64,000 nucleotides of DNA from Bacteroidales bacterium (GTDB taxonomy: Bacteria > Bacteroidota > Bacteroidia > Bacteroidales > UBA12077): positions 1 to 64,000 of the forward strand of contig JAHOYT010000054.1 in assembly GCA_019038645.1 (NCBI GenBank), read 5' to 3'. The notes beneath the pieces were generated by a model. That model was given only the letters and a program-made list of their open reading frames with translations. It had not been told where the DNA came from and made no database searches. The position numbers and the translations under genes were made by a program. This document shows positions 45,832-58,126 of this stretch, one piece after another (the stretch's first letter is position 1; the number at the start of each line of letters is the position of its first letter).

Positions 45832-48201
45832 ATGCGTAGAATTATATATATATTTCTGGCAATAACATTTAATATATTTTCAAATAATATAATTGCAAAC
45901 AATCCGGTCTCAACAGTTAATGGTTCTGTTACAAGTAATGGCGAACAGGTATCATTTGCAACTATAATAGTAAAAGGAACAACAATAGGTACTGCTTCAG
46001 ATGAATACGGGCAGTATAATTTAATTAATATACCTGATGGTAAAATTATTGTTCGTGCTCAGGCCATTGGTTACAAACCCAAAGAGATAGAAGTGGAAGT
46101 TATTACTGCAAAATCGAAACAGATTAATTTTGATTTGGAAGAGGATGTTTTTGGACTTGAACAGGTGGTTATTACAGCCGACAGAAACGAAAAAAACAGG
46201 AAAGAATCATCTGTAATTGTAAACACTTTAACTCCAAAATTATTTGGCATTGCACAAACTGCAACATTAAGCGAGGGATTAAATTTTTGTCCGGGATTAA
46301 GAATGGAGAATAACTGTCAGAACTGCGGCTTTAATCAGGTTCGTATGAACGGCATGGAAGGGCCGTATTCTCAGATTCTAATAAATAGCCGACCAATTTT
46401 TAGCGGATTAGCAGGTGTTTATGGTCTTGAATTAATCCCATCTAATATGATTGAGCGAATTGAAGTTGTACGCGGTGGAGGTTCTGCTTTATATGGAAGT
46501 AACGCCATAGCAGGAACAATAAATTTAATTTTGAAAGATCCAATCAATAATTCTTATGAAGTGGCACTTAATAGTGCCCTAACCGGTGTTGGGATTAATG
46601 GCTCCGGAAATCCGGCAGAAGATTACAGTGTGAATTTTAATACATCCATTGTTTCAGATGAAAATAAAACAGGAGTAGCATTGTATGGATTTTACAGGGA
46701 TCGCCAACCTTTTGATGTTAACGATGATGGATTTTCGGAATTATCTTTAATAAAAAATAATACCATTGGAACACGATTATTTTACCGTCCCGGATATAGA
46801 AATAAAATAGCCATAGATTTTTTTAATATCAGAGAAGACAGGAGAGGTGGTAATAAATTTGATTTACCTAAACACGAAACAGATATTACCGAAGCTGTTG
46901 AACATAATATCACTACAGGTGCAATAACTTTTGATCAATTTTTCAGGGAATTTGATTTGTGGTCGGTATTTGCATCGGGGCAGTTTGTCAACAGAGATTC
47001 GTATTATGGTGCATTACAGTCACTTAAAGATTATGGAAGGACCAGCGGATTTACATATACAATAGGATCACAATACAATGCCAAATTTAAAAATTCAGGT
47101 TTGATTTTAGGAATTGAAAATCGGAGAGAAACTTTATTTGATGAAAAACTGGGCTATCCTGATTATGAAGGCGCTTATTACGTAGCTGGTAATTTATTTA
47201 TTCCTCATATTGAGAATACCACAGTTGCTGATCAGGTGTCGAACACTTTAGGTGCATTTGTACAGTATGAGGTTGATTTAAATAAGTTAAATATATCGGT
47301 TGGTGCCAGGTTCGATAATTATTTGGTTGAGGACAGAGAAAATAATGCAACCAAAAAAACAGGAAATGTAGTAAGCCCAAGGTTAACTTTTAAGTATGAT
47401 TTTATGGAGTATTTGCAGGCTCGTGTAAGTTATTCTCAGGGATACAGAGCACCTCAGATTTTTGATGAGGATTTACATATTGAAACATCAGGTTCCCGAA
47501 AAGTTGTTCACACGAATGATCCTGATTTAAAGCAGGAAACAAGCCATAGTTATATGGCTTCATTAGATTTTAATAAATCTTTTGGTACGATTAATACAAG
47601 TTTATTGATCGAGGGATTTTATACTAAACTAAATGATGCATTTGCTAATGAGTATAATAATCCTGATGCAAACGGAGTGGTTACTTATACAAGGATTAAT
47701 ACCGGTGATGGTGCTTTTGTTCAGGGTATTAATCTGGAATTAAATTTAGTTCCATCAGATATTTTTTCGTTTTCGGGTGGTTTTACATTTCAAAGTAGTA
47801 AATATGAAGAGGAACAGGAATTTAACGAAAAAAACTTTTTTAGAACTCCAAACCAATATGGATACTTAACAATTGACTGGGATTTTATGAAGAATATATG
47901 TTTATCTGCTACCGGAAACTACACTGGCAGCATGTTGGTTCCTTACTTTGGACCGGAACAAACAAATCCGGAAGTTGGTGAATTAAGAAAGTCTGGTTCG
48001 TTCTATGATATTAGCTCAAAATTAAGCTATGATATAAAAATTAAAGAGAGCAAAGTGCAGATATTTGCCGGAATAAAAAACATTTTTAATTCATATCAGA
48101 ATGATTTTGATTTAGGAATAGAGCGCGATCCGGGTTATTTGTACGGACCCACTTTGCCACGAACAGTATATTTCGGAATTAAACTGGGGAATTTATTGTA
48201 A
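45832..48201 (+). CDS. TonB-dependent receptor with N-terminal carboxypeptidase-regulatory-like domain
   Basis: 789 residues. Signal peptide (IYIFLAITFNIFSNNIIAN), a CarboxypepD_reg-like domain (about 25-110: VNGSVTSNGEQVSFATIIVK, EYGQYNLINIPDG), a plug domain with NCQNCGFNQVRMNGMEGP and RIEVVRGGGSALYGSNAIAG, and a 22-strand-type barrel ending YFGIKLGNLL. It imports or senses an unidentified ligand across the outer membrane using TonB energy. The Cys pair in the plug (ENNCQNCGF) is unusual and could bind metal. It follows the small His-containing protein. The substrate may be a metal complex, an inference from neighbourhood. Confidence 0.9.
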   Translation: MRRIIYIFLAITFNIFSNNIIANNPVSTVNGSVTSNGEQVSFATIIVKGTTIGTASDEYGQYNLINIPDGKIIVRAQAIGYKPKEIEVEVITAKSKQINFDLEEDVFGLEQVVITADRNEKNRKESSVIVNTLTPKLFGIAQTATLSEGLNFCPGLRMENNCQNCGFNQVRMNGMEGPYSQILINSRPIFSGLAGVYGLELIPSNMIERIEVVRGGGSALYGSNAIAGTINLILKDPINNSYEVALNSALTGVGINGSGNPAEDYSVNFNTSIVSDENKTGVALYGFYRDRQPFDVNDDGFSELSLIKNNTIGTRLFYRPGYRNKIAIDFFNIREDRRGGNKFDLPKHETDITEAVEHNITTGAITFDQFFREFDLWSVFASGQFVNRDSYYGALQSLKDYGRTSGFTYTIGSQYNAKFKNSGLILGIENRRETLFDEKLGYPDYEGAYYVAGNLFIPHIENTTVADQVSNTLGAFVQYEVDLNKLNISVGARFDNYLVEDRENNATKKTGNVVSPRLTFKYDFMEYLQARVSYSQGYRAPQIFDEDLHIETSGSRKVVHTNDPDLKQETSHSYMASLDFNKSFGTINTSLLIEGFYTKLNDAFANEYNNPDANGVVTYTRINTGDGAFVQGINLELNLVPSDIFSFSGGFTFQSSKYEEEQEFNEKNFFRTPNQYGYLTIDWDFMKNICLSATGNYTGSMLVPYFGPEQTNPEVGELRKSGSFYDISSKLSYDIKIKESKVQIFAGIKNIFNSYQNDFDLGIERDPGYLYGPTLPRTVYFGIKLGNLL

Positions 48202-48358: not shown

Positions 48359-50773
48359 TTATTCATACCTAAGCGCTTCAACCGGATTTTTATTAGCGGC
48401 AATTACTGCATGTATACTTATAGTAAGTTGAGCTATTAGTAAAGTTATTAAACCAGCTATAAAATATATCCAGTATGGCATATCAATTCTATAAGAAAAA
48501 TTCATTAACCATTTATTCATAAATAAGTATACCAATGGCCATGCAAGTATATTTGAAATTAGAACTAACCACATAAATCCTGATGACATATTTAATACTA
48601 TTTTTGAAATACTAGCACCAAGAACCTTTTTTATACCAATTTCTTTTGTTCTCTTTTCAGCAGAATATAAGGTTAATCCATAAAGTCCCAGGCAAGCAAT
48701 AAAAATTCCAAGAAATGTAAAGATTAATATTAACTTACCGGCTTTTTCCTCTTCATTGTAGAGTTTATTAAAATCATCATCTAAAAAGTAATAATAAAAT
48801 GGATTATCAGGATATAATTCATTCCATTTCTTTTCTATAGTTTTGACCGATGCACTGATGTCCCCATCATTAATTGTAAGATTTAAAGTGCTAAATTGAT
48901 CTGGAAAAAATTCTAAGATAAGTGGTTCAATTTTATTCTGGAGTCCCATAAAATGGAAATCTTCGACCACACCAATAACTTTTAATATTCTTCCTCCCAA
49001 TCCGGTAACAATTTCATGTCCAATTGCTTCTTCAGGATTGCTCCATCCGAATGATTTTAAAGCAGATTTGTTTAGAATATAAGAACCATATTCACGTTGT
49101 TCCCACGATGAAATATCTGTAATTATGGTTTTGTCAAAATTTCTACCTCCAATTAATTTAATATCAAATTGACTAATAAAGTTATCATCAACAAACATGT
49201 AATACATGGATTGACTTTTATTATCTTGTTCTCTTGGTAGATGAGCAGAAAAATTACCTATACTATGTCCGATGGAAGTAGATGAAACGGAAATATCTTT
49301 CACATTCGTATTTGAAATAAACTCTTTTTTAATTTCCTCATAATTTTCTTCAACTGAGATGCTACCTCTTATTGGAAGAATGAGTTTGTTAGATTTATTA
49401 AACCCAAGCTTTTTGTTTTTCATATAATTTACCTGGGTATATATAATAAAAGATGCAATAATTAAAGCAATTGAAATAGCAAATTGTATTATTACTAAAA
49501 CTTTACGAACAATTGAACTAAAAGAACCTTTTCTTTTTTCATTACGAAATGCATCTATAGGTTTTACAATTGACAAATAAATGGCAGGATAACTTCCGGA
49601 TAAAAGACCTATTAAAATTCCAAATACTATTAAGCCGGGCAATGTCCACCAATTAGATAAATATTCAATGTTTAAATCTTTATCTACAAGATTATTAAAT
49701 GTTGTTTGAACTAATTCAATTATGTATAGGGCAATATTCAACGCAATAAAACTTAAAATAACCGATTCAATAAGAAATTGAGAAATAACAACTTTTTTAG
49801 TTCCTCCAAGAATTTTCCGAATAGCGATTTCCTTAAAGTTATTTATGTTTTTGGATGTTGATAGATTCATAAAGTTAACACTTCCAATAATTAGAATAAA
49901 TATTCCAATAATTGAAAAAATGAATATATATATATTATTACCATGGATATTTTCATCAAGTCTGTATGGTTCATTTAAATGAATATCTGCTAATGGTTCT
50001 ACAAAGAATCTTATACTAAATCCATTATCTCTCATTCGCTGACCTTCATAATGATAAGCTATAGTATCAAGTCCTGCTTCAAATCTTTCAAAATCGATAT
50101 TTGGTTTAAGTGTGATATATGTAAAAAACATAGTGTTAAACCAATTGGCATTCAGTTCATGCCAGTCTTTCCAAGTAGCTAATGATGCTATAAATTCATA
50201 TTGCAAAATAGAATTATCTACACAATCTTCAATAATTCCAGTTATTTCATAATCACGAGTATTTACATGAATTAATTTTCCAATTGGATCTTCCTCACCA
50301 AAATATTTTTTTGTTGCACCTTGCGTTACTAAAATTGTGTTTGGGCGAACTAAGGCATCATCAGGATTTCCTTTGATAAATCTTATTTTAAATATTTTTA
50401 ATAGATCCGGCTCAGAAATAATCATTTTACTTTCGTAAAAGCTTTTATCTTCGTATTTAAATAATCTATTTCCCCAAACGTATGTACGGGCTGAATATTC
50501 AACCTGAGGGTGTTTTTCTTTTATCCCAGCACCTGCAGGTCCGCATACGGGAGCATAAATAGTACTTTCTTTTCCTTGGGTAAATTCTTGAAGTACTCTG
50601 TATGTTCGTTTATAATTAGGATGAAACTTGTCATAACTTAGCTCGTGATTAATCCACAAAAAGATTAAGATACTGCAAGCAAGACTAATTGCCAGACTCA
50701 ATATTTTTATAATCGAGAATATTTTATCGCTTATAATTTTTCGAAGGCTAATTTTTATATGATTCCAAAACAT
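48359..50773 (-). CDS. FtsX/MacB-type ABC transporter permease
   Basis: 804 residues. TM1 (IIKILSLAISLACSILIFLW) is followed by a periplasmic MacB-type domain, then membrane clusters near 280-300, 325-345, 375-400 and 425-450, a second periplasmic domain, and a final cluster from about 680 to 800. This two-domain FtsX-like duplication is common in Bacteroidota, where it functions with an ATPase encoded elsewhere in exporting lipopeptides, antibiotics or cell-wall signals. No ATPase gene is adjacent. It is divergent from an NtrC/NtrB-like pair, and its upstream region holds a candidate sigma-54 promoter. Substrate unknown. Confidence 0.85.
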   Translation of the reverse strand: MFWNHIKISLRKIISDKIFSIIKILSLAISLACSILIFLWINHELSYDKFHPNYKRTYRVLQEFTQGKESTIYAPVCGPAGAGIKEKHPQVEYSARTYVWGNRLFKYEDKSFYESKMIISEPDLLKIFKIRFIKGNPDDALVRPNTILVTQGATKKYFGEEDPIGKLIHVNTRDYEITGIIEDCVDNSILQYEFIASLATWKDWHELNANWFNTMFFTYITLKPNIDFERFEAGLDTIAYHYEGQRMRDNGFSIRFFVEPLADIHLNEPYRLDENIHGNNIYIFIFSIIGIFILIIGSVNFMNLSTSKNINNFKEIAIRKILGGTKKVVISQFLIESVILSFIALNIALYIIELVQTTFNNLVDKDLNIEYLSNWWTLPGLIVFGILIGLLSGSYPAIYLSIVKPIDAFRNEKRKGSFSSIVRKVLVIIQFAISIALIIASFIIYTQVNYMKNKKLGFNKSNKLILPIRGSISVEENYEEIKKEFISNTNVKDISVSSTSIGHSIGNFSAHLPREQDNKSQSMYYMFVDDNFISQFDIKLIGGRNFDKTIITDISSWEQREYGSYILNKSALKSFGWSNPEEAIGHEIVTGLGGRILKVIGVVEDFHFMGLQNKIEPLILEFFPDQFSTLNLTINDGDISASVKTIEKKWNELYPDNPFYYYFLDDDFNKLYNEEEKAGKLILIFTFLGIFIACLGLYGLTLYSAEKRTKEIGIKKVLGASISKIVLNMSSGFMWLVLISNILAWPLVYLFMNKWLMNFSYRIDMPYWIYFIAGLITLLIAQLTISIHAVIAANKNPVEALRYE

Positions 50774-50806
50774 AATTTGTAAATTTAATTGGTTTTGAAA
50801 TTGAAT

Positions 50807-50822
50807 TTCAAGATAAGTGCCG
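50807..50822 (-). promoter_or_regulatory. Candidate sigma-54 promoter for the FtsX-type permease
   Basis: On the minus strand CGGCACTTATCTTGAA matches the -24/-12 consensus TGGCACGN4TTGC in the GGCAC and TTG cores with correct spacing, differing at the T before GGCAC, the G after it and the C of the -12 GC pair. Its predicted start is about 22 bases before the permease ATG at 50773. Confidence 0.5.
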
Positions 50823-50888
50823 TAATTACAAATGTATTGTAAGTCAGTTAAATGCTAATATAAATTCATTGATAAAGTTCACAAATGT

Positions 50889-50921
50889 AGCAAAATGATC
50901 AATTTGCTGTAGCAAATTGAT
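50889..50921. promoter_or_regulatory. Palindromic enhancer site for NtrC-like regulator
   Basis: ATCAATTTGCT and AGCAAATTGAT form a perfect 11-bp inverted repeat around GT (50898-50921). A third half-site, AGCAAAATGAT, directly precedes it. The cluster lies about 110 bases upstream of the predicted permease transcription start, the normal distance of NtrC-type enhancers. Confidence 0.55.
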
Positions 50922-50980
50922 ACAGTATATTTTGAAATTAATCTTAGGCTCAATACATTTGAATTCTAATACTTAAAATT

Positions 50981-52351
50981 TTGAATAAAGGTAAAGGAAA
51001 AATATTAATTGTTGACGACAATAAAAGTTTATTAAAAGCTCTAGAATTACTTTTAACAAAGGAATTTGAATTAATTCAAACCATAAGTAATCCTAATTTA
51101 ATTCCTGAAACTATCAGAGCTAATGACTTTGACATTGTGTTACTTGATATGAACTATAAGGCTGGATTAAATACAGGTACTGAAGGATTATATTGGTTAA
51201 AAGAAATTCAAAAGTTCGATAAAGATATAGTTGTAATAATGATAACTGCTTATGGAGATATAAATCTTGCAGTTAATACAATGAAGGAAGGTGCAACCGA
51301 TTTTATTTTAAAGCCTTGGGAAGATAGTAAACTCTTAATTACTTTAAAAAATGCTTTAAAATTAAGAGAATCAAAAAGGGAAATTGGTAGCCTAAAACAA
51401 AAACAAAAGCATTTGATTAATGATATGGATAAACCATATTCAAAAATAATAGGGAACTCACCTGCGATGCAAGAAATTTTTCGAAAGATTAAAAAGGTTT
51501 CTAAAACGGATGCAAATATCCTATTATTAGGTGAAAATGGTACAGGAAAAGAACTGATAGCAAGAGAAATTCACAGGCAATCATTAAGAAAGGATCGAAT
51601 TTTTTTTGGTGTTGATTTAGGTGCTATAAGTGAAACTCTTTTCGAAAGTGAGTTATTTGGACATACTAAAGGCGCTTTTACCGATGCAAAAGAAGAAAGG
51701 GCTGGCAAATTCGAATCTGCATCAAAAGGTACAATATTTTTGGACGAAATAGGGAATCTATCATTAAATATGCAAGCCAAACTATTATCGGTTCTGGAGA
51801 AAAGATTCATTACTAAAGTTGGTGCCGATATAGAAATTCCAATTGATGTAAGGATTATTTCAGCTACAAATCAAGATTTAAAAAAACTAATTAACAATAA
51901 TCAATTTAGAGAAGATTTATTATATAGAATTAATACAATTGAAATTGAAATTCCACCATTGCGGGAAAGACAGGACGACATTATTGAGATAGCAAATCAT
52001 TATTTAAAAATTTATGAATCTAGATATAAGAAAGAAAACCTAACTTTAGATGAGAATACACTTGCCAGATTGCAAAAATATCATTGGCCTGGAAACATTA
52101 GAGAACTTAGGCATGCAATCGAAAAAGCTGTAATTTTAACGGAATCAAATAAGATTTCTATTTCAGATTTAAGTATAGATAGTGAATTCATTAGTCCTGC
52201 AGATAAGTTGTCTCTTGATGAAATTGAAAAACATGCTATTTTAAAGGTGCTTAAAAAAAATAAATGGAATCACAGTCATGCAGCAAATGAATTAAAGATT
52301 GCTCGAACAACCCTTATTCGAAAGTTAAAGAAGTATGGTCTTCATAATTAA
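50981..52351 (+). CDS. Sigma-54-dependent NtrC-family response regulator
   Basis: 456 residues. Start is TTG: the next in-frame ATG lies inside the receiver domain and an in-frame stop occurs about 20 bases upstream, so TTG is required. Receiver domain with D56 (LLDMNYKAG) and TAYGD; AAA+ domain with Walker A GENGTGKE (184-191), the sigma-54-contact loop GAFTDA (231-236, instead of GAFTGA), Walker B GTIFLDEIGN and arginine-finger region FREDLLYRIN; C-terminal Fis-type helix-turn-helix HAANELKIARTTLIRKLKKYG. It acts on sigma-54 promoters from an enhancer. The kinase gene follows after 8 bases. Confidence 0.94.
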   Translation: MNKGKGKILIVDDNKSLLKALELLLTKEFELIQTISNPNLIPETIRANDFDIVLLDMNYKAGLNTGTEGLYWLKEIQKFDKDIVVIMITAYGDINLAVNTMKEGATDFILKPWEDSKLLITLKNALKLRESKREIGSLKQKQKHLINDMDKPYSKIIGNSPAMQEIFRKIKKVSKTDANILLLGENGTGKELIAREIHRQSLRKDRIFFGVDLGAISETLFESELFGHTKGAFTDAKEERAGKFESASKGTIFLDEIGNLSLNMQAKLLSVLEKRFITKVGADIEIPIDVRIISATNQDLKKLINNNQFREDLLYRINTIEIEIPPLRERQDDIIEIANHYLKIYESRYKKENLTLDENTLARLQKYHWPGNIRELRHAIEKAVILTESNKISISDLSIDSEFISPADKLSLDEIEKHAILKVLKKNKWNHSHAANELKIARTTLIRKLKKYGLHN

Positions 52352-52359
52352 AGTAACTC

Positions 52360-53709
52360 ATGATATATAAGAAATTTTATATAAATATTGTTGTCAGAGT
52401 AGTTCTTTTATTAGCAACTTGTTTTTTAATTACTTTTTCATTTCCTACCCAAAAAGCATTCTTGATAATAAATCATTTAGCTCTATTAATTATTCAAATA
52501 ATTTTACTTGTTAGATATTTAAATAAAACCAACTATGAACTAGCTGATTTCTTTGAGAGTGTTGTTAATAAGGATTATAACTTCTTGCAGTTTTCTAAAA
52601 AAAAGGGAAAGTCGTATTCAAAATTATATGAATCGTTAACTGTAATAAGTGATGCATTAAAGAAATCTGAAATAGAAAATATTTTTAAATCCCAATATTT
52701 ACTTGCGGCTATTGAAAATGTAGGAACTGGATTAATTTGGTTCGATGATAAGGGAAATGTGCTTTTAGTAAATAAATCTACAAGGGAACTGCTAAGTATA
52801 AGCACGTTATCAAATATTTCTGAGTTAGATTATGTAATGAAAGGATTTTCTCAAATAATAAATGAAATTAAACCTTCAGAAAATAGATTAATTAAACTAT
52901 ATATAGGAGATGATTATAGACAGATTTCAATAAAATCTACAGAACTTATACAACAGGGTAAACACATTAAGTTAATTTCTTTGCAGGATATTAAAAACGA
53001 ACTTGACGAAGTAGAATTGGATTCATGGCAAAAGTTAATTAGAGTCCTGGCACATGAAATAATGAACTCTATCGGACCAATAACTACAACTACAACTGCA
53101 ATTTTAAGGTATTTTAGAAATGATCAAGGAATGACAATAGATTTAAATAATATAGATAAAACAACCATAGATAATACAATAAAAGGGCTTGAAATAATTG
53201 AAGATCGTAGTGTTGGTTTAAAAGAATTTGTAAGCAATTATAGGCAATTAACTAATTTGCCGAAACCAATTATTTCCGAAATAAAGCTAAATTCTTTTGT
53301 TGAAAATATCAGTTTATTATTTAAGGAAGAATTTCTGGATAGAAATATTGATTTTAATTATGTTGTTGAACCAAAAGATAAGAGTTTATCAGCTGATGAG
53401 AAACTTATTTCCCATGTCATAATAAATCTCTTGAAAAATTCTATTGAAGCTGTTCGATCTATTAAAAAACCTAAAATAGATCTGAAAGTTTTTGAAAACA
53501 AAAACAATGAAATAGTAATTCAAGTTAGAGATAATGGACCTGGAATTCCCGAAGAAATTATTGATAAAATATTTATACCATTCTTTACAGCCAAAGAAGA
53601 AGGTTCAGGAATTGGATTAAGCTTATCGCGTCAGATTATGCGATTGCATAATGGTTCAATTAAGGTAAAATCTTCAAAAGGAGGAACAGATTTTCAATTG
53701 ATTTTTTAA
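52360..53709 (+). CDS. NtrB-like sensor histidine kinase
   Basis: 449 residues with two N-terminal membrane helices ([18 protein letters not shown] and [19 protein letters not shown]), a PAS-like segment (about 115-200: [20 protein letters not shown]), a HisKA-type H-box [14 protein letters not shown] with H232, N-box [14 protein letters not shown] and G-boxes [10 protein letters not shown] and GSGIGLSL. It would phosphorylate the adjacent NtrC-like regulator. It lacks a large periplasmic domain, so it probably senses a membrane or cytoplasmic signal, maybe membrane stress handled by the divergent permease. The last residues are at 53709; a stop-rich A/T spacer follows. Confidence 0.93.
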
Positions 53710-56391: not shown

Positions 56392-56420
56392 TTGTTAATT
56401 CAATTTATTCATTATCTTTG
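56392..56420 (+). promoter_or_regulatory. Promoter of metal-efflux operon, nearly leaderless
   Basis: TTG (56392-56394), 18 bases, TATCTTTG (56413-56420) fits the TTG/TAnnTTTG consensus well. The GTG start at 56425 lies only 4 bases downstream, so the transcript would begin almost at the start codon. The ORF-track start (TTG, 56392) is inside this promoter and cannot be the real one. Confidence 0.6.
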
Positions 56421-56424
56421 GATC

Positions 56425-56799
56425 GTGGTAAAAAATAAATATAGCATATTACCTTTCTTACTTTTAGCGTGGACTATAATTTTTGCTCACAGTGTTATCC
56501 CGCATCATCATTCAGAGAATTTTCATTCCGAATGTAGTCATCACTCCCATGAAACTCATTTTTCTGAAATGTCAGAAATTCATGATTGTAATCACGAGTG
56601 TAATGATCATACCTGCCATTTTCATGTTGATGTTTTAACGAAGGTTTCTGTTGATAATGTTTTTATCACAAATAACATAAATACATTTTTAAATAATCTC
56701 AACTTTTCAGAATCATATGATAATGGTTTCTTTGTTGATTTTATTTCTAATCAGATACCAAAAACCAATCATCTTCGCGGTCCTCCTGTACTTGTTTAA
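56425..56799 (+). CDS. Small His-rich membrane-anchored protein, RGPP C terminus
   Basis: 125 residues from the GTG at 56425 (the track start overlaps the promoter). One hydrophobic helix (ILPFLLLAWTIIFAHSV), then a very His/Cys-rich central part (HHHSENFHSECSHHSH, HDCNHECNDHTCHFH) and C-terminal LRGPPVLV. Helix, His cluster and terminal RGPP recur in the 45368 protein. It probably anchors in the inner membrane with the His-rich part in the periplasm, as a metal buffer or chaperone for the efflux pump encoded next. It is the first gene of an operon with a fusion protein (61 bases downstream), RND pump and TolC-like protein. Confidence 0.72.
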   Translation: MVKNKYSILPFLLLAWTIIFAHSVIPHHHSENFHSECSHHSHETHFSEMSEIHDCNHECNDHTCHFHVDVLTKVSVDNVFITNNINTFLNNLNFSESYDNGFFVDFISNQIPKTNHLRGPPVLV

Positions 56800-56860
56800 T
56801 GAGGTTTTCAATTCCAACAAGGAATTTTATTTTTTTCTTTAATCCAAATCTTAAATTATA

Positions 56861-58126
56861 ATGAGAAAATTCACAGTTGTTCTCATATCAATGGTTTATA
56901 TAACCATGATGAGTTGTAAACATAATGATGATCATAATCATGATGATCACGGTCATTCACATGAAGAAGTAAGTGAACATACAGATCATGATAATGAACA
57001 TGAGCACGAAAAAGAAACAGAAGAACACGCACACGATCATTCAGTTGAAGAGCATAATCAGGATGAAGCAGAAGAACATGTACACAATCATACAGATGAA
57101 GAGCATAATCAGAATGAAACAGAGGAGCACGATCATAAGCACGAGTATAAAACAGCAAAAATACAGTTACAGTCATTTCATCAAATTATTAAAACAAGTG
57201 GCGAAATAATAAATTCTCCATCAGAGGAAATTGAGGTTGTAGCAACCAACAACGGAAGAATAAGCCTTTTTGCCGGTTTGGCAAAAGGTGTTAATGTTAA
57301 TACTGATCAAATTCTTTTTCAAATATCAGGAGATAATATTATAGATAACAACATTGCTTTAAGGTATAATACAGCAAAAGCAGATTTTGAAAAAGCAAAA
57401 TCAGATTTTGAAAGAGCTGAAAAATTGACTAAAAACAATATTATTTCTGAAAAGGAGTACGAACAAATTAAACTTGAATATTCAAATACAAAGTACGAAT
57501 ATGAATTAATTGCAAAATCATACAAAAAGGGTAGTGGCGTTGTAGCTTCTCCGTCAAAAGGTTATGTGAAAGAGTATTTTGTTAATGAGGGACAATATGT
57601 TGAAACCGGACAAAAGCTGGCCGTTATTAATAAACAGAGTAGATTAAGATTGGTAGCTGAAGTATCTCAAAAGTATGTTCACAATTTGCCTGAAATAGAA
57701 TCAGCCACTTTTCTAATTAATAATAGTGAAAAGGCATTCGATACTGAATCATTAGATGGGAAACTTATTTCATATGGTAAATCAGTTAATAGTAAAAGCT
57801 ATTATATCCCGGTAATCTTTGAAATCAAAAATGATAAAGATTTACTGCCCGGTTCTTTTACGCAGGTTTTTTTAAAAGGTAAAGAGCTGAAGGATGTTAT
57901 TGTTGTACCTGTATCGGCATTAATTGAAGAGCAAGACAATTATTTTGTTTTTGTTGAAGAAGATCATGATAAATTTCAGAAACGACATGTTATTTTAGGT
58001 GACAGTGACGGAACAAATGTATTGGTAAAAGAAGGTTTATCTGCCGGAGAAATTATTGTAACCGAAGGAACATATTTTGTTAAACTGGCAAGTATGTCAA
58101 ATGAACTTCCTGTACATAGTCATTAA
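56861..58126 (+). CDS. RND-efflux periplasmic adaptor lipoprotein with His-rich N-terminal repeats
   Basis: 421 residues. A lipoprotein signal (VYITMMSC) precedes a His/Glu/Asp-rich region of about 80 residues (HNDDHNHDDHGHSHEE) with a 17-residue unit in at least two tandem copies (57020-57121) plus a part-copy. The rest is the HlyD/CusB-type adaptor: a lipoyl-like half (GEIINSPSEEIEVVATNNGR), an alpha-hairpin (about 150-205) and beta-barrel domains (VVASPSKGYVKEYFVNEG, LPGSFTQVFLKG). It bridges the RND pump and outer-membrane channel and probably binds the metal directly. Which metal is unclear; the His region suits Zn, Cu or Co. Confidence 0.9.
   Translation: MRKFTVVLISMVYITMMSCKHNDDHNHDDHGHSHEEVSEHTDHDNEHEHEKETEEHAHDHSVEEHNQDEAEEHVHNHTDEEHNQNETEEHDHKHEYKTAKIQLQSFHQIIKTSGEIINSPSEEIEVVATNNGRISLFAGLAKGVNVNTDQILFQISGDNIIDNNIALRYNTAKADFEKAKSDFERAEKLTKNNIISEKEYEQIKLEYSNTKYEYELIAKSYKKGSGVVASPSKGYVKEYFVNEGQYVETGQKLAVINKQSRLRLVAEVSQKYVHNLPEIESATFLINNSEKAFDTESLDGKLISYGKSVNSKSYYIPVIFEIKNDKDLLPGSFTQVFLKGKELKDVIVVPVSALIEEQDNYFVFVEEDHDKFQKRHVILGDSDGTNVLVKEGLSAGEIIVTEGTYFVKLASMSNELPVHSH
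57020..57145 (+). repeat. 51-bp coding tandem repeat in the adaptor gene
   Basis: The unit EEH(A/V)H(D/N)H encoded at 57020-57070 and 57071-57121 repeats nearly exactly, and a third partial copy starts at 57122. The unit encodes EEHxHxH followed by an acidic EEHNQ segment, so the His content scales with unit number. Confidence 0.7.

What the first reader, a model, noticed from the sequence alone, without database searches (positions are those of the whole stretch)
48359..53709. Complete sigma-54 circuit: permease promoter, palindromic enhancer, NtrC and NtrB genes
A minus-strand GGCAC-N5-TTG element sits about 22 bases before the permease start by prediction, and a perfect 11-bp palindrome with a third half-site lies about 110 bases further upstream. 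The divergent genes encode the matching NtrC-like activator and NtrB-like kinase. The geometry fits enhancer-dependent activation and identifies the likely target and binding site of this regulator.
Basis: partly seen in the sequence, partly recalled or inferred. Interest (0 to 1): 0.6.

Follow-up and report, generated by a model that had tools for sequence, protein, structure and literature searches.

The report
Sigma-54 switch for an orphan permease
This stretch encodes a membrane-embedded sensor kinase and its matching gene activator, which most likely switch on a neighbouring membrane transporter through the enhancer-dependent sigma-54 system; it is one of 16 similar switch modules in this bacterium, most with visibly different DNA 'addresses', which makes a poorly known way for Bacteroidota to control dozens of transporters directly testable.

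Summary
Permease (48359-50773 -), NtrC-type regulator (50981-52351 +), kinase (52360-53709 +) and a -24/-12 element (50807-50822 -) are real. Alone the element is near chance (2 seen, 0.96 expected), but all 42 related loci with a close divergent permease carry one, and exact copies fall on the target strand 55:1. The genome encodes RpoN with an intact RpoN box.

The 11-bp palindrome exists but its register is probably wrong. A syntenic orthologue (regulator 79% identical) and the paralogues indicate that the operator is two NifA-like TGT-N11-ACA sites 22 bp apart (50886-50902, 50908-50924); the palindrome bridges them and its right arm is not conserved.

The cassette is one of 16 in this 3.4-Mb genome: 15 face permeases, one faces an adaptor plus ABC ATPase. 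Operators differ between cassettes and covary with the recognition helix. The 110 kinases examined have, with two unclear cases, two membrane helices joined by a ~9-residue loop, so they look intramembrane-sensing, not NtrB-like. Activators carry GAFTDA/GSFTDA, and promoters show no preference for C at -12.

Best reading: a sigma-54-driven transporter module, loosely analogous to Bce modules of Firmicutes. Signal and substrate unknown.

The parts
48359..50773 (-). FtsX/MacB-type permease without ATPase domain, 804 aa, 8 predicted TM helices and two large extracytoplasmic domains; predicted target gene
50796..50796 (-). predicted sigma-54 transcription start of the permease (about 12 nt downstream of the -12 position; approximate)
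   Evidence: inference from the position of the -24/-12 element
50807..50822 (-). -24/-12 element CGGCACTTATCTTGAA; orthologue has TGGCATTACTATTGGT at the aligned position
50886..50902 (+). operator site B, TGTAGCAAAATGATCAA (one strong half-site TGTAGCA)
50908..50924 (+). operator site A, TGTAGCAAATTGATACA (TGT-N11-ACA); the only match to TGTAGCANNNTGCTACA with at most 1 mismatch in the genome
50930..50961 (+). predicted Bacteroidetes housekeeping (-33/-7) promoter of the regulator gene, TTTTG-N19-TACATTTG; same pattern in the orthologue
   Evidence: consensus from general knowledge
50981..52351 (+). NtrC-type response regulator: receiver, sigma-54 AAA+ domain with GAFTDA loop, Fis-type HTH with recognition segment IARTTLIRKL; TTG start aligned in the orthologue
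52360..53709 (+). histidine kinase with two N-terminal TM helices and a ~8-residue loop, i.e. intramembrane-sensing type

Best explanation
The locus is a self-contained, locally acting sigma-54 module. The regulator and kinase genes are transcribed from a housekeeping-type promoter (50930-50961). The kinase has no periplasmic domain, so it reads the membrane or a membrane partner, most plausibly the permease or its cargo, and phosphorylates the regulator. Phosphorylated regulator dimers occupy two 17-bp TGT-N11-ACA sites on one face of the helix (22 bp apart), assemble the AAA+ hexamer, loop to RpoN-RNA polymerase at the -24/-12 element ~90 bp away and start permease transcription at about 50796. 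The ATPase would come from elsewhere in the genome. Shown by sequence comparison: the genes, the element, the paired sites, their conservation in an orthologue, their match to recognition-helix type, one intact rpoN, kinase topology. Inferred: phosphorylation, binding, looping, the signal, the ATPase partnership, any autorepression of the regulator promoter that adjoins site A.
For: -24/-12 element in all 42 loci with a close divergent permease (at least 8 of 9 informative bases in 81% vs 1.3% of shuffles); exact TGGYA-N6-TTG on the target strand in 55 of 122 loci vs 1 on the regulator strand. Paired TGT-N10/11-ACA sites ~22 bp apart score >=13 in 43% of 122 loci vs 0.4% of shuffles, and in 30 of the 42. 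Element and both TTGCTACA half-sites are retained in the syntenic orthologue. Recognition helix and operator sequence covary beyond overall relatedness (partial r 0.39, 0 of 2000 permutations). The window operator is unique in the genome, suggesting one local target. Single rpoN with intact RpoN box. Kinases have two TM helices with median loop 9 aa. 95 of 122 loci have a permease and/or adaptor/ATPase in the divergent direction.
Against: No expression, start-site or binding data. The -12 element lacks the canonical C (TTGA) and the activator loop is GAFTDA, not GAFTGA; GAFTDA is regarded as functional in Desulfovibrio vulgaris (PMC4641369). Site B has only one strong half. Only one orthologue of this exact cassette was found (2 of 20 genus genomes including our own), so footprinting rests on two sequences. 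Pair score >=13 is missing in 12 of the 42 closest loci. The transporter-sensing step is an analogy.
Confidence: 0.82

Rival explanations
1. The regulator binds the 24-bp palindrome 50898-50921 as one symmetric site with a third half-site beside it.
For: Perfect 11-bp arms; 0.01 matches to the core expected by chance in the window.
Against: Right arm keeps only 5/11 bases in the orthologue while TGTA(T/G)CANNNTGCTACA becomes more symmetric there; many paralogues have two separate TGT-N10/11-ACA dyads at the same spacing.
Confidence: 0.1
2. The divergent promoter is read by the housekeeping sigma factor and the regulator acts as a repressor or locally without sigma-54; the GGCAC-N5-TTG is accidental.
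For: The element alone is near chance; GAFTDA and the -12 base are non-canonical.
Against: Element present in 42/42 related loci with strong strand asymmetry; AAA+ sigma-54 domain intact and rpoN present.
Confidence: 0.06
3. The kinase detects a small molecule or membrane state directly, and the permease is only an output, not part of the sensor (a rival to the sensing step only, compatible with the sigma-54 output step).
For: Short-loop kinases that sense the membrane directly are known, such as DesK (PMC8534201); kinase and permease are on opposite strands, not co-transcribed.
Against: Repeated one-to-one pairing of such kinases with FtsX-type permeases.
Confidence: 0.45

Closest known systems
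NtrC/AtoC/ZraR-type class I sigma-54 activators with a partner kinase
   Same: Receiver-AAA+-Fis HTH architecture, paired dyad enhancer upstream of a -24/-12 promoter
   Different: GAFTDA/GSFTDA loop in 119 of 122; 17-bp TGT-N11-ACA sites 22 bp apart; fails the NtrC, AtoC and ZraR equivalog cut-offs
NifA upstream activator sequence TGT-N10-ACA
   Same: Same outer TGT...ACA dyad and 16-17 bp size (NifA site as in PMC6066989, PMC4999443 and others)
   Different: Inner bases differ between cassettes and track the recognition helix; two-component rather than NifA-type signalling
Bce-type peptide-sensing and detoxification modules of Firmicutes (BceRS-BceAB)
   Same: Two-helix intramembrane-sensing kinase next to an FtsX-type permease whose gene the pair is predicted to activate (Bce description: PMC8534201)
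   Different: Sigma-54 activator instead of OmpR-type regulator; no ATPase in this cassette; duplicated MacB-like permease rather than BceB; flux sensing untested
Predicted sigma-54 regulation of COG0577 permeases in Bacteroidia (PMC12316311, 2025)
   Same: Same general claim that FtsX-like permeases are sigma-54 targets in this class
   Different: That genome-scale survey kept only activators with a GAFTGA motif, so it would drop nearly all of this family; no reference to paired operators, cassettes or kinases was found in the passages read
ADOP duplicated permeases (TIGR03434) and darobactin exporter DarB (NF038008)
   Same: Full-length similarity to the permease (242 and 164 bits)
   Different: Both far below the family cut-offs (622 and 700)

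Membership tests
Sigma-54 enhancer-binding response regulators (class I bEBP) | Receiver + sigma-54 AAA+ + HTH_8 domains | tested here: met
   Pfam hits all above cut-off
Sigma-54 enhancer-binding response regulators (class I bEBP) | Exact GAFTGA loop | tested here: not met
   GAFTDA here; GAFTDA/GSFTDA in 119 of 122 relatives. GAFTDA is listed as a tolerated variant in PMC4641369, so this does not exclude function
NtrC (NR(I)) orthologue | NCBIfam equivalog cut-off | tested here: not met
   296 bits vs 620 for NF008176
NtrB (NR(II)) orthologue | NCBIfam equivalog cut-off; soluble kinase | tested here: not met
   64.6 bits vs 240; two N-terminal TM helices predicted
Sigma-54 promoter | TGGCAC-N5-TTGC with GG at -24 | tested here: inconclusive
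   GG and TTG present, C at -12 absent; family-wide the -12 dinucleotide is GG 14, GA 13, GT 9, GC 1 of 42
Sigma-54 promoter | Transcription depends on rpoN | not testable with these tools
   rpoN present; needs a mutant
NifA/NtrC-type enhancer | Two or more 16-17 bp dyads in helical phase upstream of the promoter | tested here: met
   Two sites 22 bp apart, conserved half-sites in the orthologue
Intramembrane-sensing histidine kinase | Two TM helices with a very short extracytoplasmic loop | tested here: met
   Hydropathy only: loop 8 aa here; median 9 and 95th percentile 14 across 110 kinases; one helix only detected in 2
Bce module | OmpR-type regulator and ATPase in the cassette | tested here: not met
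   NtrC-type regulator; no ATPase gene at this locus
Bce module | Kinase activity controlled by transporter flux | not testable with these tools
   needs permease mutants
ADOP family permease TIGR03434 | Score above model cut-off | tested here: not met
   241.9 vs 622.3 bits, although aligned over the full length

The most novel reading that the evidence does not exclude
Bacteroidota have built a large set of mutually insulated sigma-54 transporter-sensing modules, each with an intramembrane kinase that reads its own permease, a dedicated activator and a private operator, functionally parallel to Bce flux sensors but on a different transcription platform; activator loop (GAFTDA) and promoter (-12 without C) have drifted together.
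Probability: 0.35. Interest if true: 0.75.

Novelty: new variant of a known kind. Interest (0 to 1): 0.55.

Why it matters
It turns a single-locus guess into a testable rule: recognition-helix type predicts operator, operator predicts target. With 16 parallel cassettes in one genome and relatives across the Bacteroidota, the set suits work on how paralogous two-component systems avoid crosstalk, and offers a route to the signals and substrates of dozens of uncharacterised permeases. It also warns that sigma-54 surveys requiring GAFTGA or TTGC would miss this family.

Tried and rejected
A strict Bacteroidetes -33/-7 promoter for the regulator is present in window and orthologue but in only 6 of 43 loci, so it is not claimed as a family feature. 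The pair scan recovers operators poorly for several distant Cytophagales loci whose target lies behind a longer intergenic region. Literature searches for an earlier description of the cassette found only the 2025 survey; the library is open-access only, so earlier work may exist. Shared-ATPase idea: two ATPases 83% identical exist (C2 inducible-looking, C33 standalone without an element), plus several at 41-47%, so a single shared ATPase is not established.

Full report
What was checked. The window holds a permease gene (48359-50773, minus), a divergent response-regulator gene (50981-52351) and a kinase gene (52360-53709). Pfam finds MacB_PCD and FtsX in the permease; Response_reg, Sigma54_activat, AAA_lid_14 and HTH_8 in the regulator; HATPase_c in the kinase. 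The GGCAC-N5-TTG element is at 50809-50821 minus and the 11-bp perfect inverted repeat at 50898-50908/50911-50921. On its own the element is unremarkable: two matches in the window, 0.96 expected.

The genome. The assembly has 3.39 Mb in 102 contigs. It holds one rpoN, 494 aa with an intact RpoN box ARRTVAKYRE, and 18 strong sigma-54 activators. Sixteen of these are regulator-kinase pairs like the window's. Fourteen face an FtsX/MacB-type permease on the same contig. A fifteenth lies at the left end of contig C50 and probably continues on C68, which starts with the same promoter element followed by four permease genes (the contig junction is inferred). The sixteenth faces a HlyD-type adaptor and an ABC ATPase. 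In one cassette (C30) the kinase gene lies beyond the contig end and was not seen.

The promoter. In all 16 own-genome cassettes a TGGCA-like -24/-12 element precedes the target (the C19 copy, TGGTCTGATAATTGA, and the C5 copy, TGGCACAATTTTATC, are the weakest). Over 42 loci from this and related genomes with a permease within 400 bp, the best element scores at least 7 of 9 informative bases in 42 of 42 (12% of mononucleotide shuffles) and at least 8 in 81% (1.3%). Across 122 loci the exact form occurs on the target-gene strand in 55 and on the regulator strand in 1. The base after TTG is rarely C: GG 14, GA 13, GT 9, GC 1 of 42, and 6 of 55 in the wider set.

The operator. Among 59 related genomes one, G013, holds a syntenic orthologue: regulator 79%, permease 75% over its first 429 residues, kinase 64% identical. 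Aligning the two intergenic regions shows CTGTA(T/G)CA...TGCTACA kept where the window reads TGTATCAATTTGCTACA (permease direction), and a second TTGCTACA kept 22 bp on, whereas the right arm of the palindrome is largely lost (5 of 11). In the orthologue the first site is a near-perfect dyad, TGTAGCA-AAA-TGCTACA. The same layout, two TGT-N10/11-ACA dyads about 22 bp apart, is visible in many paralogues and relatives: a pair score of at least 13 in 43% of 122 loci against 0.4% of dinucleotide shuffles, and in 30 of the 42 loci with a close permease. This is the outer form of the NifA site TGT-N10-ACA (PMC6066989 and others). In the window the sites are 50886-50902 and 50908-50924, and the palindrome 50898-50921 bridges them. 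I therefore judge the observation real but its register probably wrong.

Specificity. Grouping regulators by recognition helix gives recurring operator types: TRQTL(Y/H)NK with TGTAAAA or TGTCTAA, INRSTLY with TGT(C/T)GGA-like, TRGALYRR with TGTCCAT, TR(T/A)SLYRR with TGT(T/A)CG, and the window's IARTTLIRKL with TGTAGCA. Over 63 cassettes, helix similarity and operator similarity correlate after correcting for identity in the rest of the protein (partial r 0.39; 0 of 2000 permutations as high). The window operator has no second match with at most one mismatch in the genome, which suggests a private target. The C19 regulator seems to have several: C19-type sites with -24/-12-like elements also precede the fourth permease of its operon and an unlinked permease on C43 (L170:2128).

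The kinase and the permease. A hydropathy scan of 110 partner kinases gives at least two N-terminal membrane helices in 108, with a median loop of 9 residues (95th percentile 14). Such kinases lack an extracytoplasmic sensor and often take their signal from a membrane partner; BceS, which depends on the BceAB transporter, is the model case (PMC8534201). The window permease has 8 predicted helices and two large extracytoplasmic domains, and resembles MacB in its FtsX part. It has no ATPase domain and no ATPase gene beside it. Across the 122 loci, 95 have a permease and/or an adaptor/ATPase in the divergent direction, often in one operon in other lineages. That makes a link between these permeases and the adaptor/ATPase plausible, not proven.

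Interpretation. The best-supported mechanism is sigma-54-dependent activation of the permease by the local regulator from two phased sites. The first steps, signal and phosphorylation, are inferred; that the kinase monitors the permease is my working hypothesis at about even odds.

Novelty. A 2025 survey predicted sigma-54 control of FtsX-like permeases in Bacteroidia and called it the first such evidence (PMC12316311), so the general link is not new. That study kept only activators with a GAFTGA motif, while 119 of 122 regulators here read GAFTDA or GSFTDA. GAFTDA is considered functional elsewhere (PMC4641369). In flavobacteria sigma-54 promoters have been mapped and one validated by mutagenesis, in connection with stress, envelope and gliding genes (PMC9723704). 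The parallel cassette set, the paired operators, the helix-operator covariation and the kinase topology were not found described in the papers I could search. I class it as a new variant of a known kind.

Limits. No experiment; one orthologue for footprinting; some operator calls are weak; the 122 loci are related sequences, so counts over them are not independent events; topology is from hydropathy only; the genome is a 102-contig assembly without a name, and its genus mates are also unnamed.

Noticed in passing
G000 (own genome), 16 cassettes; L165-L177: Sixteen of 18 sigma-54 activators sit in near-identical divergent cassettes; the number of related regulators per genome varies from 1 to 21 among 20 genus members, some of them incomplete assemblies.
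   Followed up: partly
42 loci, -24/-12 elements: The -12 position shows no preference for C (1 of 42 GC), unlike the canonical TTGC; in more distant loci TTGGC is frequent. May go with the GAFTDA loop.
   Followed up: partly
L170:2026-4536 (C43) and L169:16008-18503 (C19): An unlinked permease and the fourth permease of the C19 operon carry C19-type operator sites and -24/-12-like elements, suggesting a multi-target regulon.
   Followed up: partly
L224:4650-5333 (C33) and L167:10299-10982 (C2): Two ABC ATPases 83% identical, one in a sigma-54 cassette with an adaptor, one standing alone without a detectable element.
   Followed up: partly
window 45832-48201: The TonB-dependent receptor next to the permease lies on the other side of the cassette in the orthologous locus L211, a local rearrangement.
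   Followed up: no
window 56392-58126: A short His-rich protein followed by a membrane-fusion-like protein with a long His-rich N-terminus, resembling a metal efflux operon by eye; not tested.
   Followed up: no
G000 contigs C50 and C68, left ends: Both ends carry the same TGGCATGTTTATGG element, so they probably adjoin, giving a cassette that drives four permeases.
   Followed up: partly
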